Shown here piece after piece: positions 3,076 through 15,330 of a stretch of 64,000 bases of DNA. The stretch's first letter is position 1; each line of letters begins with the position of its first letter. A program made the position numbers and the translations under genes. The DNA comes from Mytilinidion resinicola (taxonomy: Eukaryota; Ascomycota; Dothideomycetes; Mytilinidiales; Mytilinidiaceae). The stretch spans positions 1,287,269-1,351,268 of the forward strand of contig NW_022985446.1 of assembly GCF_010093595.1 (NCBI RefSeq). The letters are read 5' to 3'. The notes below the pieces were generated by a model, which saw only the letters and a program-made list of their open reading frames with translations, was not told where the DNA came from and did no database searches.

Positions 3076-5912
3076 TTATCCAAACTTTAAACCCTTTGCC
3101 GCATCCCACCGCCCATCTTGAGGAGGTCCTGCAGTAGGTCGCGATCCTGCTGGCGCAGCCGGTGCTCCTCCAAACCTGATACCAACCTCAGGCGTCCACA
3201 TGCCAGTAGTAGGGCCGACGGCTCTGGTAGGCGTTGGGGCTGCTAACGGCTCTCCAGCGTGAACATTAGCGCCATACTGTGGATTCTGGCTTTCCGCATG
3301 CCGCTGTTGCTGTAACGAGTTCGTTTGGAGGTTCATAGACGACATAGCCGTTGCAATGTCACTAATATGATGTTAGAACCGCGACAATAAGGACTTGATG
3401 CTCACTTACTTCTCGAGTTGTGAAGCCTCCGCCTTCCTCTGGTACGCGAACGTCCGGCAATCGTCCCTGAACCTACTCACGATCTTGGCAAGGTCGTTGT
3501 AGAATTTCCTCCCAACATCGAGATTCGAGATGATCTCCTTGTACTTGAAAAACGAATTCTCCAAGCTCTGCAAAGCCTGTTCTCGCTGCTTCGTCGACTG
3601 ATCGCCCTTCCGAGCTGTCACAAAAGCTGCGTTCGCCTCCTGAATCCGCTTGATGGCGTCTTGTTGCTCTCGCTGCTCGTCCTGAACCATCTCTTTATCC
3701 ACGTTGTACATTTGCAGGCGCTTATCAAACAAGTCCTCAAACTGTACAGCCTCAATGCTCTGCATGGGGTATTCCTGCTCTAAGCGAGTGGTTTCGCGTT
3801 GTAAATCTGGATCTTGAAACTCGTTAGTTTTTGATGGGGTGAATGAGCATGATATACTCACTGATTTCATCCTGCTTTGCTTTCATTTTGAGAGCTTCGA
3901 CCTTCCGTCTCCTCCTACTTTCCAGGCGGCTGAGCTCATTCAGGCAGCCCCTGAGCTTTCCAGCCTCCCGGTCCACGACTGTGTTAATCATAGGTTTTCG
4001 CCCACTAGGAACAAAATTCTCAAGGTCTCGATCCGGGCCGCTTAACAGTTGGATGTTACGCTCGTTTTCTCTTAGCTTCGTCTTGACAATGTTGTCGCTG
4101 TTTACGGCGGCCTTAAAATAGCCATCAATCTCGCCAATCTGAGCATACAGCTTTGGTGCAGCTGCTTCTGCAGTTAGCCGGTTCCAGCGATCAGTCCCGT
4201 ACTTCCGCCGGACAGCGTCGTCTTCCGCAGCCTCCGTCCTCAGAATTTCGCAGCCTTCGTGATATATTGCCTGGTCGCTCTTCTTCAACTTCTTCGTGTC
4301 CTCTACAGAGCAATGGAGGCGATTTAGACCATCATGTTGTCTAATTTCTTCAGCGTGTGCAATGAGGCCTGGAGGAAGCCCTAGCGGCTTTTCAAGGGCT
4401 TGCAACGACCCAGGTAAGTTTAAGCTGTTCAAAACTCTAGAAGGCTCGTTAATTTCCTGCCATGGCAGAATGGTTGGGTAGTGTGAATGGATCTTACTCG
4501 TGAATCTTGTTTGTTAGACCCTCCAATTCGTTGATTATGGTATTATTGATGAGTCGATCTCTCCGCTCCTCGTAGATGCTAGCTGCCAAGTGAACTGAGT
4601 AGGGAACCAACTTGGAAAACAATGGACGACCCAAGGGACGGTTGTCTCCGAGCATAGAATTTGACTCGGAGATTTCCTTTGGCACTTTGGCGGACACCAT
4701 GTTGGCGCGATCCAGGGTTTTTAACTCCGATTTTGGCGGCACAGGAACTAAATACCGCATGCGTTAGTCCTCCATAGGAATGTATTGAATAGGGGCAGAC
4801 GTGTATACTCAAATAGATCATGTCATTGTCCTTTTCAGCCCGCTTCAAATCTTCGGTAACGCGATTCTTCAAGCCGTTCAAATCCGCCAATACGGCCTTG
4901 TTGATGTAGCGTTGTTCTTTCAAAGCCTCATTTACACACAACAGACTGTCCCGTAATCTCGCGACCTCTTCTCCGTACTTCCGCTTTTCTAGGCAATCGC
5001 AAGCAGCTCGATATTGCGCCGCCGCAGCGAAGTGGTGATGCTTGGCCGTCATGTGGTGTATCCACTCGCTACTTATTGCGTCCGATCCGATTCCAAAGTC
5101 CCCTGCTTCCGAATATAGATCCGATACCCTTGCGGCTAGTTTCGAAATAGAAGCATCCTTCAGGCCGTCCTTGACAGCCTTTTGCCAGAAGCATTCCTGA
5201 GCCTGTGCCAACAGTAGCTTTTCAATACTCTCTAGCGTCATTGTGTCCATATCATCGGGTGGTGGGGCCCGCATTTCGGGGATTGTGTCAGTTCGAAGGT
5301 AGGAGAGGACTCCGGCACCTAGGCAGAAATTGTTGGCAGCGGTCCTCAGGCCATCTGACGTGCTTCGATTGGATGCCATGGCGAGCTGAGAGTACAACGC
5401 AGCAAGGTTGTAGATGATGTTTGCCAACTCGAACCGGATATTGTTCTGGGATACTGTCCTTATATCAGCCTTGTCCGAGTAGTTGTGTGAGTGGCATTAC
5501 TTGGGCGATTCGTGTTATATCCTAACGCCGGATACCACGAGAAGTCAACTCCTATCTATACCCACTTCTGTTAGTTGAATTGTACGTGAATAGAGAGCGA
5601 TATCGGGGCATGTCTTACATCTATTGGGAATTTCCCTCCTATATAGACAATTTGGGCAGCGTATGTTTGGAGCTTTGGAATGTTGCTGGGATGGGCATCT
5701 TGCGCGTGTGCTGCTGTAGAGCGTAATTTATCGATCGCCTCCAAATCCTGCGTGAACATATCCGGGTGCTGGTCATATTTGGTCGAGATGTACTGCTTGA
5801 TGGCTTCGGAGAGAGAAACAGTATGGGTCCGTCGAAACGGGAGGAAGAGGATGTTGCTGTAGCCTATTAGTAAAGAGCGCGCAGGATAGTGAAAGCAAAC
5901 ATACGAGGCCAT
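3076..5912 (-). CDS. palA: pH-response regulator PalA/Rim20 (BRO1 domain)
   Basis: Eight exons: 5905-5912, 5619-5856, 5501-5555, 4809-5453, 4498-4747, 3862-4436, 3410-3812 and 3076-3361, joining in frame to 819 aa. The first exon is only 8 nt (ATGGCCTC) and splices to give MASNILFLPFRRTHTVSL, matching the PalA N-terminus. The BRO1 domain fills about residues 5-390 (FSWYPALGYNTNRP, LYSQLAMASNRST, EWIHHMTAKHHHFAAAAQYR). A coiled-coil V domain follows (LPGSLQALEKPLGLPP, KYGTDRWNR, VGRKFYNDLAKIVSRFRDD). The tail carries WTPEVGIRFGG and ends DAAKGLKFG. In the family, PalA binds YPXL/I motifs of PacC and recruits it to ESCRT-III (Vps32) at endosomes for alkaline-pH-triggered proteolysis. Length and motif order are those of a full-length protein. 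It is divergent from atx1, with a 574-bp shared upstream region. Confidence 0.95.
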
Positions 5913-9177: not shown

Positions 9178-9879
9178 GTGGGTTGAACTGCCAGGTGGTA
9201 TGCGGTAACGAGGTTATGAGCCTTTGTATTTGTATTTGTACTTTGTATTATAGTGTACTATACCCCACTCTGGCACTTGGACGGGCCATGAGGCGTGGAT
9301 GAGGGCTACGGCCCGGATGGGTTTGGAATTAGAAGGGATGGGAAGGGAATGTACTCAGCTGTAAATAACGGCATCACATTACTCCGATACAAGCTTGTGG
9401 AGAGTGTAAATTTCCTCATGCTGAACTGACATATCGTATTGTAGGATACGAAATGGCAATATGTGTACGCCATCTTACCACCGTCAGGGGTGCTTCAACA
9501 CACTTGCAATACTTTGAACAGAAAGAAGTCTGTCATTATAAACGATGTGTAAACTGGCCAGGCGGCCTCAGACAGCGATAGAGGTGTACTGTACTTAGAG
9601 TTAGAATTGGAACCGAACTATTTCTAGCTTCCAATGAGTAAAGAGACCACTCTACGAACGAGAAACTTCCTCATTGATACTGGCCTTCTGCTTATCACGA
9701 GATTGTTATGCAAAGGAAGAATATGAGACAAAGTCGTGACTTGATAATCACAGCCTCGGATACGACTCTCGCACGAGCTATGATGGAAGACTTCTGGGTC
9801 TTCGGTAACGATGTGACGACTCCTGATAGGCTTGTAGAACGTCATGCGGAGGCACAGAGGTGTGGAGGCAAAGACCGTA
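9178..9879. other. Intergenic region before the transposon
   Basis: No supported gene. It contains one dispersed-repeat copy at 9551-9590. Composition is ordinary. The left end of the downstream transposon probably lies at its right border. Confidence 0.45.
9551..9590 (+). repeat. Dispersed repeat copy, paired with 27290-27330
   Basis: AAACTGGCCAGGCGGCCTCA followed by GACAGCGATAGAGGTGTAC aligns without large gaps to the segment at 27290-27330 (AAACTCGCGAGGCCACCTCA then GACAGTGCTAGAGAGGTTTAC). Both copies lie just downstream of the 3' end of a host gene. Confidence 0.5.
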
Positions 9880-9894
9880 CAGCTCAGCTGACCT
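9880..9894 (+). repeat. Candidate left terminal inverted repeat
   Basis: CAGCTCAGCTGACCT matches the reverse complement of 14801-14815 at 13 of 15 bases. The match is short, and a chance match of a low-complexity AGCC/GGCT-rich margin is possible. No flanking duplication was found. Confidence 0.35.
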
Positions 9895-9968
9895 CGGACA
9901 AACGCCAAGCCGACCCGACCCGGTCAAAACGCCTAAGCCACACAAACCTCACCCGACCTGCCCCATCT

Positions 9969-9998
9969 AATTCATTACTAATTCATTGAAAATGTCAT
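9969..9998 (+). repeat. 11-nt-pitch AATNNATT array over the start of the zinc-finger gene
   Basis: Octamers begin at 9969 (AATTCATT), 9980 (AATTCATT) and 9991 (AATGTCAT), exactly 11 nt apart. The third, degenerate unit contains the initiator ATG at 9992. This is the same architecture as in the element's introns but lies in leader sequence. Confidence 0.7.
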
Positions 9999-11183
9999 TC
10001 ACAAACGAAGTAAGTCCTCTATTAGGCGTCAGAAAAGCTGTAGCTAATTGATTAGGACGCGTACAAAGAGTACGCTGCCCTGGAGGAGCGTCCTACCAAT
10101 GTAGAGCCCTGGACCAAGAATGTAAGTTGAGAAGTGAAATAGAATGGATAATGTATTGCTAATGCATTGGTAATACATTAGAAAGACGGCGAGATCGAAA
10201 TTGCTCCTGGAGAACTCTTCTGCCGCTTTAACATGGCTGAGAACGACTTCGATGAGGTTGAGCTCTGCCCGCGCAATGTAAGTTTGAATGATAATTGTTT
10301 CTAATACATTGCTAATCCATTATCAACGCATTAGACACGATACTCCCACAACGGCAACCTGCGCGCTCACGTCAAGATCCACAAGGTGAAGGTGGCTAGG
10401 GTTCGTCCGGGTACCTTGAGCATGATGGAGCTTCGCCAGGTGAATAGTAAGTGGGCTGGATAATGCATTAATAATGTATTGCTAATTTATTATTATTAGA
10501 GTTCTATAAGGATTTGATGGCCCGGTATAACCGCCCTTATAATCCTGAGGCGGAGGATGCGGTCGAGGTTCCTAGTAAGTAACGCCTTTCAACCTATTTA
10601 GAATCTATTGCTAATGCATTGGCCATAGCTACACCGGTCAAGGGCCCTCCTACTCCTGTTCCCAAGACTCGTCGTCCTAGGGTGCCTCTCATCAAGACTG
10701 GGAAGAACAAGGGCAGGGTAAGAAACAATCTAATATATTGCTAATACATTACTAATGCATTAATCAGGTCAATCTTACTCAGGCTCGGCTTCTCTCTGGA
10801 GTTGTTGGAAGGCGCTGCGCTGCTTGTGTTAAAGCCAAGCGAACTGGTAAGTTCTCAGGTTGTGAAGAAGCAGTTCTGTGTTGATTTGAAGAGGCATAAG
10901 GCCCGTATATATAGCCTATGAAAGGGGGGGGGGTACTCCCCTGTTCCCCCTTGTTACGGATATGGAAGGATGTAACGCCACTGACACGCTAGTAGTGGCA
11001 ACCTGAGTTAAGTAGTAAGATATAATGTATTCCTAATGCATTACTAATAGATTATCAGTCTGCCCTGACCCTGGCGACGTCACTACCTGCACGGTCTGGG
11101 AAGCGTTCACCGACAAGTCGTCTTCAGAGGAGGACGAGGAGGACGAGGACGAGGAGGACGAGGAGGAGGAGGGGGAGGATTGA
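9992..11183 (+). CDS. Transposon-encoded zinc-finger-like protein with acidic tail
   Basis: Eight exons: 9992-10009, 10056-10121, 10182-10277, 10335-10446, 10500-10574, 10629-10717, 10768-10846 and 11059-11183. Every junction keeps frame and uses GTAAGT-like donors; the product is 219 aa. Residues about 37-80 contain FCRF, CPRN and a finger-like second half HNGNLRAHVKIHK, resembling an irregular C2H2 finger. A second Cys cluster, CAACVKAKRTG-VCPDPGDVTTC, is near residues 168-190 and is interrupted by the last intron. The C-terminus is a run of Asp/Glu. I do not recognise the family. Its place beside a transposase and its DNA-binding look suggest an accessory or regulatory protein of the element. 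Intron 7 is 212 nt, four times the usual size, and contains a run of ten G (about 10925-10934). Confidence 0.7.
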
Positions 11184-11191
11184 TGGGTAGG

Positions 11192-11221
11192 AATGAATCG
11201 GCAATGAATTGACAATGCATG
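11192..11221 (+). repeat. 11-nt-pitch AATNNATT-like array after the stop of the zinc-finger gene
   Basis: Units AATGAATC (11192), AATGAATT (11203) and AATGCATG (11214) sit at the same 11-nt pitch, 9 bases after the TGA at 11181-11183. The units are more degenerate than those of the introns. Confidence 0.55.
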
Positions 11222-11280
11222 GTAGCTAGCCTGGTAGCTAGCTCGAACGGAATGAACATGTCCTCCAGCCAATATCTTCT

Positions 11281-11310
11281 AATGCATTTGAAACTAATTC
11301 TTAATGCATT
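11281..11310. repeat. 11-nt-pitch array over the stop codon of the transposase
   Basis: Units AATGCATT (11281), AACTAATT (11292) and AATGCATT (11303) at 11-nt pitch. The transposase stop codon (complement of 11301-11303) overlaps the last unit, so the array supplies the end of the coding region. Confidence 0.65.
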
Positions 11311-14300
11311 GCCCCTTGCAGTTTTAGTCTTCTTTCCTGCAGGTCTAACTCAAGCTGATCGTTACGCAGCATAAGAGCTCTTGCCTCCTCCTCCATTATC
11401 TTTACTTCAACCTCCAGCCGCCGTCTTTCTAGACTATTGTCCTGTTCAGAACTTACAACTTGAGGTTGAGTGAGGTTATTCTGTGACGCTTGTCGAAGGA
11501 GGGGGGTGCCCATTCTAGTATGGTTAATGGATTGTAAATAGATTATAAATATATTAAGAATATACCTTCTTACGCCTCTCGCACTTCCGCCCCTTACACT
11601 TCCTCCTCTTACACTTTCTCTACCACGAGACCTAGATCTGACGCTTGCTACACCAGAAGATGTTGCCTCTGATAGAAAGTCAGGAAAGTCGTCGTCATCA
11701 TCGTTACGTCGCCGCTTCTGCCTTGCCTGAAGTTCTCTTTCAAAGAGAGCCTCTTTAGGAATATATTAGTAATGCAGTGATAATGGATTAATGACAACTT
11801 ACTCTCCCTACGATTTGCTTCCTCATATCTAGTCGTAAGAGCAGTCGATCGATATGTATGACCTATTCCATGCCACGTACGAACAGCCTCTTGTTGATAG
11901 TCTCGGCGGTCAAGAATCTCTCCGCTATAGTATGTTAGTAATGATTTTATAATGCATTAACAATATCTTACTAATGTATTGCACGCAATAGACTTAGGCG
12001 CCGCCCCATAGAGTCAGACTTGTAGTGAGTTTGCTCAGTTGCATTAGTATTTTTTCTTAACTTGTCCCAGATCTCTGGATCGACGTCAGAGCAATACTTA
12101 TTGAGTCCACTAGCTATTATAGGGTGGCGTTTATGTCGTGCCCACCCTTGGACCTTGTCTGAGGCAGTTAGATCTTAATATATTAGCAATACATTAGGAA
12201 TAGATATATAATGTATTACCGTTCATTAGGAGATCACAGAGAGTCATATACTCCTCTGCAGACTGGCAGTGTTGGAGCGATATCATTCGATGCCATAGAG
12301 ATGTTGGTCGTCGAGTTCCTATACCAACTGCGCGCTCAACACCATGTTGAAAGTGAATTGTGCAGTAAACAACTGCATGCTTGACATGCCATTGCCAGTG
12401 GCGTCGCTGAGGATCTATCCCAGAGAGATAGCGGCCAAATCCTAATACATTACTAATGTATTATCAATATACTAGATTGTTAAAACGTACCTGGCATCTG
12501 CTTTGTATCCATATCCATTACCATAGCCCGGAAGCCACGGCCATGTATATGAAACCATAGAATTGGAACCTCAAAAAGCTTTGAAACAGTGTCAAAGAAC
12601 ATTGAAAACATCCTCTCATATAGAACAACAGATTCGCGGTTCACTAGCACTCGAGCAAGTGTAATTACTAACCCATTAGTAATGTATTAGGAATGCATTG
12701 CAAAGTATTTACCTTTTCCGTGTTCCTGTGAGAACGTTGTAAAGACTATCTCCTTCTCCTCAGAGTTATATAGTCGTTTAAAACCCATTTCGCACTCATA
12801 GGATTCAAGCTGCAGTAAGAGCTTTGCCTGTTGCTTAAAGAAGCAGAAAATAAGTATATTCGCGCCGTCATTATAGATTCGTTGAATATACTGCGTGGAG
12901 TAAGTAATAGATTATTAATGCATTAGGAATATATTCATACCGCGTCTGGATTCCCAAGGTGCCGAGTTTTAAACTCATGCTCTACTCCTGCAATATCCTG
13001 ACCCTCAGGATAAGAAAGAAGCCTCTGCTTATAGATAAGAACAGAGACTTTATCCATATTAGCAAAGCTTTTATGAACATCGATCAAGGATTTTCCCTGG
13101 TGCTGTAGGCAGAATTCACGAAGAGCGGGATTTTTGAGTAGTCCATCTAATCAATTAGTCCATCTAATCAATTATAAATACATTAGTAATGCATTTAGAG
13201 TTAATTAGCGCGTACTTACTTGTTGTGAGAGCTGGATCATTGATCCGACTAATAACAGACATTAGTCCTGCTATTAGCTCTTGTGGTGTTCGCCTTCCTG
13301 GCGGTGGAGGGTGTGTATGGGTTCCATGGGAGGTAAATAGAATATACTCGCACTCTGTACGATCCTTTGGTACAAAGATGTTGAATACAACATTACAGGT
13401 AGCCTGAAGTAGGCGGCCTGCCCCCTGGTCGTGGTCAACACCTAAGGAATTAGCAATGTATTAATAATGTATTAGGAACATATTACCACAAAACTTTTTT
13501 CGTGATTGGTTTGTTTCTATAACAAAGCAGTCCTCATTCTTATCAGGCTCTAGACCCTGATTGTTGAAGCGCATTATTAAGAATGGAATTTCAGGCCAGA
13601 GGTTTGTTGGTACTATTTTAAAATAGTGACCATTATGGTGCTGGCCCGTATGATTGATGCAGGAAACATATCGAATAGGAACGTTTGATATGGTCTAGTG
13701 TAATGGATTAGCAATGCATTATAAATGCATTGTAATCTACATACCCGCTCTGGTGATTCTCTAAGGTAAGGTGTGCACGTAGCGTTAGAGACCGCTCGTT
13801 GACATGCATTTCCTTTCCGGAATATGTTTTTCTGGGCGAGATACCAGCTAAAATAGTGTAAGTATGGATAATATATTCCCAATGCATTGTGAATGCATTA
13901 CAAACCTATTTGCTTGCTTTCGAAGTGTACTTGAGCCATGCTGCACACGTTGATTCTGTATCTTCTCCCAATCCTCAGGCTGCAGTGATGTATAGGTCAT
14001 ATCTCGAATAGATGGACTTAGGTATTCGCAGTATCGCACGCCTGTACATAGCCGATTTGACCTTATGCACTTGACGTTATTAAAGAGCTGATTCTTTGAA
14101 GGGCCCTTCCATGCGAGCTTGTGGCAAAATTGGACCTAATAGATTAGCAATGAATTATAAATACATTAGTAGACACGAACATTTTCAAACGACATCTTGT
14201 ACTGCTTCTCGTCGAACCCAGTTGTTTGTACAAGATAAGCAACTCCATTATCGTCTGAGTCTGGGTATTCTGGAACTTCTGGAACGTAGTAAAGCTTCTT

Positions 14301-14657
14301 TACTGTTAAGACATGCTCACTACCTGGAGTAGATATAGGAATAATTCCATCCCTTGGTTCGCCGAGCGTCGAGAGCTGTACACGAATTAATAGTGTATTC
14401 ATAATGGATTATCAATACATTATAGCAAACCAAGCTCTCCGTTTCCTCCTCCGTAGTAGACGAATCAGTTGGAGTTGATGCATCAACGTCAGTTGTAGCC
14501 GCTACGCTACGAAGAGTGTCAAGCTCATCCTCCCAGTGTGCAATAGGATCAATCCAGGGTTGCACAACCACTGGAGCCTCAAAAGGCCTTGTGTCTGTTC
14601 GCACTGTAAGTATTTAATGCATTGGCAATGCATTTGGAATACATTACCGTCCTCCAT
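11301..14657 (-). CDS. Fungal DDE-superfamily (MULE-like) transposase, 15 exons
   Basis: Exons 14648-14657, 14431-14603, 14181-14375, 13906-14135, 13745-13847, 13487-13694, 13220-13441, 12941-13146, 12713-12890, 12491-12667, 12220-12441, 11972-12173, 11803-11924, 11566-11752 and 11301-11514 join in frame to 882 aa. Around residues 320-352, Cys322, Cys337, His348 and His350 (ECEYILFTSHGTHTHPPPP) look like a WRKY/GCM1-type zinc finger. The catalytic-type core follows: CEMGFKR (480s), MVMDMDTKQ (Asp560), HAVVYCTIHF, and NTNATEQTH (Glu688). This order matches a transposase family I recall from many fungal genomes, whose first motif reads ESDTTFKR; here the first acidic residue is Glu483, not Asp. 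The C-terminus is Arg/Ser-rich, then a coiled coil (about 845-880). Most exon joins are constrained by frame; the donor at 14180 (GTTCGT) is weak. Family naming is tentative. Confidence 0.8.
13141..13163. repeat. Tandem 17-bp duplication at a 3' splice site of the transposase
   Basis: On the minus strand the intron at 13147-13219 ends in two successive copies of ATTGATTAGATGGACTA. Each copy carries a TTAG acceptor. The first acceptor would lead to an immediate in-frame TAG; only the second keeps the frame (NGLLKNPALREF). The duplication therefore created a competing acceptor and lengthened the intron to 73 nt. Confidence 0.7.
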
Positions 14658-14800
14658 GCAGGAGTTGAACTAATGTATAGTTATAAAAATTTACGGGGGC
14701 GCATTGGCTTATAAGGACTCAGCCGACCTGCTGCAAACCTTGGCTGACGTGGCCCCACGTGAGTGGCTTGCCCAGTCAGGTTAGCCGAGGTGAAGTGCAC

Positions 14801-14815
14801 AGGTTGGCTGAGCTG
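14801..14815 (-). repeat. Candidate right terminal inverted repeat
   Basis: AGGTTGGCTGAGCTG, inverted partner of 9880-9894 (13 of 15). Inward of it, 14720-14795 repeats the core in both orientations (CAGCCGACCTG, CTTGGCTGAC, GGTTAGCCGAGG), a layout like subterminal repeats. Confidence 0.35.
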
Positions 14816-15330
14816 CAACCTGGGAGGCAAAGCAGGGTCGACGGGACGACACGGGTGACGGGAGGTGGGAACGTCAGAGGCGCGCTACGCTGAGTGCAGG
14901 GCGAACCAACGATCTGGCCCCTGAGATCTGCGGGTTTCGAGCAGCCCTGCGGTTGGCCGGCGAGGGCCGTCGGGCATGCACGGCGATTTCTGAAAATCCT
15001 GACGCTCCAGCCTTTGCGGACCGCCGCCACGCCGCCGCTCGCATGCCACAAAAGGAGGCGTGCCTGCTTCCCTTCACCCACGATCCCCGCATTCTGTCCA
15101 CCAGACCCTGATACTCTCTTATTTCCTTAGGTCATTCCTTTCAACATCAAAGAGAAGTGGATTCGCACGTACGTGTGCCTCATTCACCGCTCATCGCCGG
15201 CCAATCACATCTCCCCGATATTACCTGCTCGGCTTTCCAGCCGCTGGCCCTAGCTTTTGCCGACCGCGCCTCCGAACTTTTTACGACTCTCCTTCACCGA
15301 CAATTCCACACACATCTACACACATCCATA
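14816..15330. other. Upstream region of the PRELI-family gene
   Basis: 515 bp between the transposon margin and the next gene. From about 15060 to 15330 the + strand becomes C/T-rich, a usual fungal promoter/leader composition. No gene is supported here; several overlapping ORFs lack any motif. Confidence 0.45.

What the first reader, a model, noticed from the sequence alone, without database searches (positions are those of the whole stretch)
10122..14647. A transposon whose introns share a 3 x AATNNATT array at an exact 11-nt pitch
Seen: in 20 of the element's 21 introns (two genes, opposite strands, unrelated exons) three AATNNATT-like octamers are spaced 11 nt apart, usually with the last one touching or near the 3' AG. 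The flanking YCT/ACT makes CTAAT, a fungal branch-site-like pentamer, once per 11 nt. Exon sequences do not share it and host introns in this window lack it. Known: fungal introns normally need one branch site, and introner-like elements (near-identical introns spread over host genes) are described in Dothideomycetes. Inference: this is an intron family confined to, and multiplied within, a transposon. It may work as a tandem-branchpoint splicing cassette and/or as one-per-helical-turn protein-binding sites. AATNNATT is inverted-repeat-like, so the array reads alike on both strands. I know of no description of this arrangement, but cannot search.
Basis: partly seen in the sequence, partly recalled or inferred. 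Interest (0 to 1): 0.93.

Follow-up and report, generated by a model that had tools for sequence, protein, structure and literature searches.

The report
Transposon with phased intron octamer arrays
A fungal jumping gene carries, in nearly every one of its introns, three copies of a short DNA word spaced exactly one helix turn apart, and non-coding relatives of the element carry the same arrays, so the introns probably house the element's own DNA control sites rather than just a splicing signal.

Summary
A 4,949-bp element (9874-14822, 10-bp target-site duplication) in a genome that is evidently Mytilinidion resinicola has two convergent genes with 21 introns. Twenty of 21 carry three AATNNATT octamers at exactly 11 nt; 0 of 21 do at pitches 8-10 or 12-16. 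The triple is found at 28 places in the genome: 25 here, 3 in two non-coding relatives (C6, C14). So the arrays look like DNA-level sites of a transposon family, with introns as non-coding housing. A tandem-branch-point role is not supported as the main one: octamers are equally kept in arrays near and far from the 3' splice site (0.972 each), while branch-like CT linkers fall from 14/24 to 4/16. Recent multiplication of introns inside the element is unlikely: five array-bearing intron positions coincide with splice-site disagreements in an Aspergillus nidulans relative; this is indirect. Intron edges lack target duplications, but fungal introners are said to lack them too, so that does not decide. 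The binding protein and the function are inferred, not shown.

The parts
9864..9873 (.). target-site duplication GGAGGCAAAG, left copy
   Evidence: exact 10-bp direct repeat with 14823-14832
14823..14832 (.). target-site duplication, right copy
9874..14822 (.). the element, 4,949 bp, as bounded by the target-site duplication
   Evidence: single copy in the genome
9880..9894 (+). core of the left terminal inverted repeat (13 of 15 with 14801-14815)
   Evidence: also 20 of 21 with the right end of the C14 relative
14801..14815 (-). core of the right terminal inverted repeat
   Evidence: region resembles the left end of C14
9992..11183 (+). small gene, 219 aa, 7 introns; Cys/His-rich, acidic tail, no family found
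   Evidence: residues 1-178 identical to annotated P0006
11301..14657 (-). large gene, 877 aa, 14 introns; putative DDE-type transposase
   Evidence: relatives; residues 246-306 and 315-744 identical to annotated P0001
9969..9987 (.). two octamers at pitch 11 before the + start codon (not intronic)
10048..10055 (+). intron p1 (10010-10055), the exception: a single octamer two bases from its end
   Evidence: octamer at intron positions 37-44, within 10046-10053
10150..10179 (+). array of intron p2 (10122-10181)
10303..10332 (+). array of intron p3 (10278-10334)
10462..10491 (+). array of intron p4 (10447-10499)
10591..10620 (+). array of intron p5 (10575-10628)
10732..10761 (+). array of intron p6 (10718-10767)
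11024..11053 (+). array of intron p7 (10847-11058)
11192..11221 (.). degenerate array behind the + stop codon
11281..11310 (.). array overlapping the - stop codon
11526..11555 (-). array of intron m14 (11515-11565)
11760..11789 (-). array of intron m13 (11753-11802); the annotated protein reads through this intron
11940..11980 (-). array of intron m12 (11925-11971) with one more octamer in the exon (11973)
12177..12217 (-). four-unit array of intron m11 (12159-12219)
12444..12473 (-). array of intron m10 (12442-12490)
   Evidence: position shared with A. nidulans
12670..12699 (-). array of intron m9 (12668-12712)
   Evidence: position shared
12906..12935 (-). array of intron m8 (12891-12940)
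13166..13206 (-). four-unit array of intron m7 (13147-13219)
   Evidence: position shared
13444..13484 (-). four-unit array of intron m6 (13442-13486)
   Evidence: position shared
13702..13731 (-). array of intron m5 (13695-13744)
13870..13899 (-). array of intron m4 (13848-13905)
14138..14167 (-). array of intron m3 (14136-14180)
   Evidence: position shared
14392..14421 (-). array of intron m2 (14376-14430)
14616..14645 (-). array of intron m1 (14604-14647)

Best explanation
The arrays are DNA-level cis sites of a transposon family, most likely bound by an element-encoded protein: the transposase or the small Cys/His-rich partner. The near-palindromic AATNNATT word, three times on one face of the helix, suits cooperative binding. 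The element has such sites spread along its body, about one array per 211 bp, and keeps them in its non-coding DNA: introns, the 5' flank and the gene ends. The introns are mostly old housing whose content is held by selection; where an array falls in the branch-site zone its linkers also serve as CTAAT branch sites. Shown: the arrays, the exact pitch, near-confinement to this element, presence in non-coding relatives, equal conservation wherever they lie in the intron. Inferred: that a protein binds, which protein, and the role (transposition, autoregulation or both).
For: Exact pitch 11 in 20 of 21 introns, none at other pitches. 25 of 28 genome-wide triples in this element and 3 in two non-coding relatives, where octamers pair only at 11 (8 and 4 pairs, 0 at pitches 8-10 and 12-16) and where C14 has ends resembling those of the window element. 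Fixed bases match 0.972 both in arrays within 8 nt of the 3' end and in those farther away. Free positions are no more alike within an intron than between introns (middle bases 0.31 against 0.33, linkers 0.32 against 0.38), so local duplication does not explain the octamers. Arrays also stand outside introns: 9969/9980, 11281-11310, 11973.
Against: No binding protein is known; the small protein has no recognised domain and no relative. The word is not fully symmetric: T before it and a pyrimidine at position 5 are sense-oriented in the two genes, which points to some strand-linked or RNA-level constraint. Only two relatives carry arrays; both look decayed, without a clear target duplication, and the units on them are partly intron-like, so they may descend from introns. 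Two related end fragments (C26, C8) have no arrays beside them. No DNA of the relatives in other species could be read.
Confidence: 0.5

Rival explanations
1. RNA-level role: the arrays act in the pre-mRNA, as tandem branch sites (CTAAT) or as sites at which a protein binds AAUNYAUU repeats to control splicing of the element's own transcripts.
For: Linkers are NCT in 19 and AGN in 1 of 43 on the sense strand of two genes on opposite strands; 16 of 21 introns have at least one CTAAY. NCT is commoner in arrays near the 3' end (15 of 25 against 4 of 18, Fisher P 0.028; 14 of 24 against 4 of 16). Nearly all octamers are in introns (53 of 57 exact in 9992-14657).
Against: Octamers are equally conserved where no branch site is needed (0.972 in both groups). 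Arrays lie before the + start codon, across the - stop codon and into an exon, and in non-coding relatives. Splicing gives no reason for an exact helical pitch (inference).
Confidence: 0.2
2. Introner-like origin: one spliceable unit (GTAAG - octamer array - branch site - AG) was copied many times into the element's genes, and the shared octamers are mostly descent from that unit.
For: One common plan in 20 of 21 introns. Antisense GTAAGT beside the array in m1, m4 and m8, as if inserted backwards: 3 found, shuffle mean 0.34, P 0.0055 (a test chosen after seeing the pattern). On C6 and C14, 5 of 11 units begin AG|GTAAGG and 8 of 11 have YTAAY right behind the octamers. Fungal introners are said to lack target duplications (PMC9860276, passage), so their lack here does not count against it.
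Against: Five array-bearing intron positions coincide with splice-site disagreements in an A. nidulans relative. Outside the octamers and linkers the introns share little. The triple was found in no host gene intron. Fixed octamer bases carry 1.55-2.00 bits but linker bases 0.12-0.82, not the even decay expected of plain descent.
Confidence: 0.15
3. Chromatin role: phased A/T words rotate or exclude nucleosomes along the element, comparable with the periodic An/Tn clusters (PATCs) in C. elegans introns that protect against silencing.
For: A/T words at one per helical turn; arrays about every 211 bp with CV 0.26; internal exons of unusually even length (CV 0.17 and 0.19; random breaks reach this in 0.00045 and 0 of 20,000 trials) (the null is naive).
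Against: A six-base fixed near-palindrome at a strict 11 nt is more specific than A/T phasing needs; only about 30 bp per array; no chromatin data. The comparison with PATCs rests on passages of one paper (PMC7725773) and on recall.
Confidence: 0.12

Closest known systems
Subterminal repeated motifs of CACTA elements (maize En/Spm bound by TNPA; soybean Tgmt)
   Same: Short motif repeated many times inside a DNA transposon, kept in non-autonomous relatives, suited to an element-encoded DNA-binding protein (PMC2613891, passages seen).
   Different: Those repeats lie next to the ends; here they run through the whole element, almost entirely inside introns, as three octamers at an exact 11-nt pitch. 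Binding not tested. No claim of CACTA membership: the target duplication is 10 bp, not 3.
MULE (Mutator-like) DNA transposons
   Same: 10-bp target duplication; acidic residues and a C-x2-H motif seen by eye (recalled signature).
   Different: No Pfam match of any member; terminal repeat core only 15 bp; the first acidic position varies within the family.
Introners / introner-like elements
   Same: A shared intron plan in many introns of one fungus.
   Different: Not found in host genes, not near-identical, and at least five positions look old.
Periodic An/Tn clusters (PATCs)
   Same: Helically periodic A/T words in introns.
   Different: Here a fixed near-palindromic octamer, in a transposon, at exactly 11 nt (PATC details partly recalled; passages).

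Membership tests
DNA transposon (cut-and-paste type) | target-site duplication at both ends | tested here: met
   exact 10-bp repeat
DNA transposon (cut-and-paste type) | terminal inverted repeats | tested here: met
   short and imperfect: 13 of 15 bases
MULE | target duplication of about 8-11 bp (recalled) | tested here: met
   10 bp
MULE | MULE transposase domain | tested here: not met
   no Pfam family for the draft protein, and no MULE model among the weak matches of 6 aligned members
MULE | RNase H-like DDE fold | tested here: inconclusive
   model of relative P0002 with mean pLDDT 39; no fold search made
Introner / introner-like element | many near-identical introns in host genes | tested here: not met
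   28 places genome-wide, all in the element or two non-coding relatives
Introner / introner-like element | recent gain (positions not shared with relatives) | tested here: not met
   for 5 of 14 positions of the large gene, indirect; the other 9 were not testable
Introner / introner-like element | target duplications at intron edges (DNA-type introners) | tested here: not met
   mean run 2.10 against 2.13 in shuffled pairings, P 0.66; not decisive for fungi
TNPA-type repeated binding sites | motif repeated near the ends and kept in non-autonomous relatives | tested here: inconclusive
   first octamers 95 bp from the left end; arrays in C6 and C14 but not beside the C26 and C8 fragments
TNPA-type repeated binding sites | bound by an element-encoded protein | not testable with these tools
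   needs a binding assay
PATC-like chromatin element | helical A/T periodicity acting on chromatin | tested here: inconclusive
   periodicity shown; action on chromatin not testable here

The most novel reading that the evidence does not exclude
A transposon family uses spliceable cis-site cassettes: a unit of about 50 bp holding a helically phased octamer array together with its own 5' splice site, branch site and 3' splice site, which can stand head to tail in non-coding elements or sit inside coding sequence as an intron, so that the element loads its own genes with protein-binding sites at no cost to the protein. Introns would here be vehicles for a transposon's DNA-level regulatory grid.
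Probability: 0.3. Interest if true: 0.88.

Novelty: new variant of a known kind. Interest (0 to 1): 0.72.

Why it matters
If the arrays are protein-binding sites, this is a transposon whose introns are kept because they carry its DNA-level control grid, a selective reason for keeping introns that differs from splicing or expression. With 20 intronic arrays, a few non-intronic ones and two non-coding relatives, DNA-level and RNA-level selection inside introns can be separated site by site.

Tried and rejected
Tandem branch sites as the main role: rejected because octamer conservation does not depend on distance to the 3' end. Local tandem duplication of an 11-nt unit: rejected because free positions are no more alike within than between introns. 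Target duplications at intron edges: none. RIP as the source of the A/T words: only a coarse look (TpA/ApT 0.97 in the element, 1.06 in introns, 0.71 in 15001-64000 of the window; substrate index 1.18, 1.17, 1.21), not conclusive. Viral link: a pattern scan of viral contigs gave 25 stretches that I did not examine. Structure: model of P0002 unusable (mean pLDDT 39), so no fold search. Solved structures: no convincing match (best E 0.036, ribosomal protein L20). Small protein: one weak Pfam match (DUF6732, E 0.68), nothing in PADLOC. The automatic gene model was replaced by that: introns 14320-14279, 11880-11829 and 11456-11355 were dropped because relatives or the annotated protein read through them, and two acceptors and the first exon were changed. 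The 781-aa query, and so alignment A1, is a draft: residues 719-727 are wrong and the C-terminal 70 residues of the final 877-aa protein are missing.

Literature: ten searches. Searches found no paper; the listings showed none, by title and abstract, on phased octamers in transposon introns. This speaks only for those searches of an open-licence library. Passages of three papers were seen; of the other papers only listings.
Full report
Where it is. The window lies on contig C10 of a genome of 47,124,854 bases in 44 contigs. The best protein match to the large gene is 98% identical, is named Mytilinidion resinicola BDZ99DRAFT_387971 and lies on a contig of 1,675,696 bases, the length of C10; so the genome is evidently that fungus, a Dothideomycete.

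The element. An exact 10-bp direct repeat, GGAGGCAAAG, stands at 9864-9873 and 14823-14832 and bounds an element of 4,949 bp, 9874-14822. The same scan found a 9-bp repeat (9953 and 14723) that lies inside the element and is taken as chance, and shorter ones. The ends share an inverted core of 13 of 15 bases (9880-9894, 14801-14815). No second copy was found by the large protein, the right end or the first 200 residues of the small protein.

The genes. The + gene (9992-11183) encodes 219 aa with 7 introns, the - gene (14657-11301) 877 aa with 14; all 21 introns are GT..AG. Independent annotation agrees for p1-p6 (P0006, identical through residue 178) and for m7-m12 (P0001, identical at residues 246-306 and 315-744). 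It disagrees at p7 and m13, which it reads through, and uses another acceptor for m6; P0001 is partial and says nothing on m1-m5. The large protein has relatives in Lepidopterella (48%), Coccidioides (38%), Aspergillus (36% and 32%) and Pseudogymnoascus (33%). No Pfam model identifies it. By eye it has conserved acidic residues and, in most members, a C-x2-H motif as in MULE transposases (recalled), but the first acidic position varies; I call it a putative DDE-type transposase. The small protein has no relative beyond its own annotation.

The arrays. In 20 of 21 introns three AATNNATT octamers stand at a pitch of exactly 11 nt, with at most 2 mismatches in the triple; 0 of 21 at eight other pitches; shuffles at most 1. 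Introns hold 53 exact octamers, shuffles 2.4 on average. Over the best triples of the 20 introns the six fixed bases carry 1.55-2.00 bits each, the two middle bases 0.22 and 0.78, the linker bases 0.12, 0.30 and 0.82 (triples were chosen by their octamer match, which favours the fixed bases). Intron p1 has a single octamer touching its 3' AG.

Genome-wide. With one mismatch allowed the triple is at 28 places: 25 in this element (some overlap in four-unit arrays), two on C6, one on C14; the pattern read backwards gives 2. Triples at pitch 10 give 2 places (control 1) and at pitch 12 give 2 (control 3), none in the element. A looser pair search gave, besides the three loci, 12 scattered places, about the number of its backward control (13 and 14).

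The relatives. C6 and C14 hold short non-coding stretches in which octamers pair only at pitch 11 (8 and 4 pairs; none at 8-10 or 12-16), in blocks of one to three; the repeat finder saw a 48-bp tandem period on C6 and none on C14. C14 has imperfect inverted ends; its left end resembles the window element's right end, and a 21-bp stretch of its right end matches the window's left end at 20 of 21 (with for the alignment of seven ends). No target duplication was found at C14 and only an 8-bp, perhaps chance, repeat at C6, where I saw no right inverted end. Read in one direction, 5 of 11 units begin with AG|GTAAGG and 8 of 11 have YTAAY right behind the octamers (counted by eye), which is intron-like. 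This may be descent from introns, the reverse, or coincidence within tandem repeats; the data do not decide. C26 and C8 hold only pieces of such ends, without arrays.

Not a splicing signal in the first place. In 12 introns the array ends 2-8 nt from the 3' end, in 8 it ends 11-22 nt away. The fixed bases match 0.972 in both groups, but NCT linkers fall from 14 of 24 to 4 of 16 (15 of 25 and 4 of 18, Fisher P 0.028, on all chained linkers). In 5 of the 8 a separate branch-like motif can be read by eye behind the array (CTAAC in m11 and m12, CTTAC in m4 and m8, CTAAT in m7); in m1, m2 and m14 I see no clear one. Arrays or octamers also lie before the + start codon, across the - stop codon and, from m12, in an exon. 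Against this stands the strand bias: T before AAT, and a pyrimidine at position 5, are sense-oriented, so some RNA-level or strand-linked constraint exists too.

Old introns. The annotated A. nidulans protein AN6691.2 (P0005) differs from an otherwise identical, longer sequence (P0003) at seven places; five of them begin exactly at window intron positions m3, m6, m7, m9 and m10, the other two are in the variable N-terminal part and the tail. A gap in the Coccidioides protein begins at m6 and one in the Pseudogymnoascus protein at m9; other differences of the latter do not clearly coincide. The simplest reading is that these introns are shared across the family. It is indirect, since no DNA of the relatives could be read, and 9 of the 14 positions were not testable. 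Three introns (m1, m4, m8) carry GTAAGT on the antisense strand beside the array (shuffle P 0.0055, a test chosen after the fact), which could mean reversed units; with the intron-like units of C6 and C14 it is the best evidence for an introner-like origin. The lack of target duplications at intron edges does not exclude it, since fungal introners are said to lack them (PMC9860276, passage); on rechecking I raised that rival from 0.13 to 0.15.

Mechanism. I take the arrays to be binding sites of an element-encoded protein, with introns as non-coding housing (0.5). It would work like the TNPA-bound repeats of En/Spm (PMC2613891, passages), but I do not file it there: the placing differs and binding is untested. 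An RNA-level role (0.2), an introner-like origin (0.15) and a PATC-like chromatin role (0.12; PMC7725773, passages) remain open.

Noticed in passing
L055 about 5014-5690 (contig C8): A separate stretch of about 680 bp with long inverted ends (GGACGAGTCTAATTATCACCCCCC...) beside a fragment resembling the end of the C14 element.
   Followed up: no
L054 4903-4978 (contig C26): 76 bp, 99% identical to the right end of the C14 element, with no array beside it.
   Followed up: partly
window 10847-11058: Intron p7 is 212 nt, far longer than the others, with a run of G and C-rich sequence before the array; the annotated protein reads into it and stops.
   Followed up: no
window 13144-13175: A 16-bp tandem duplication at the 3' end of intron m7 (by eye).
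   Followed up: no
window 9992-14657: Internal exons are unusually even in length: mean 86 (CV 0.17) in the + gene, mean 185 (CV 0.19) in the - gene.
   Followed up: partly
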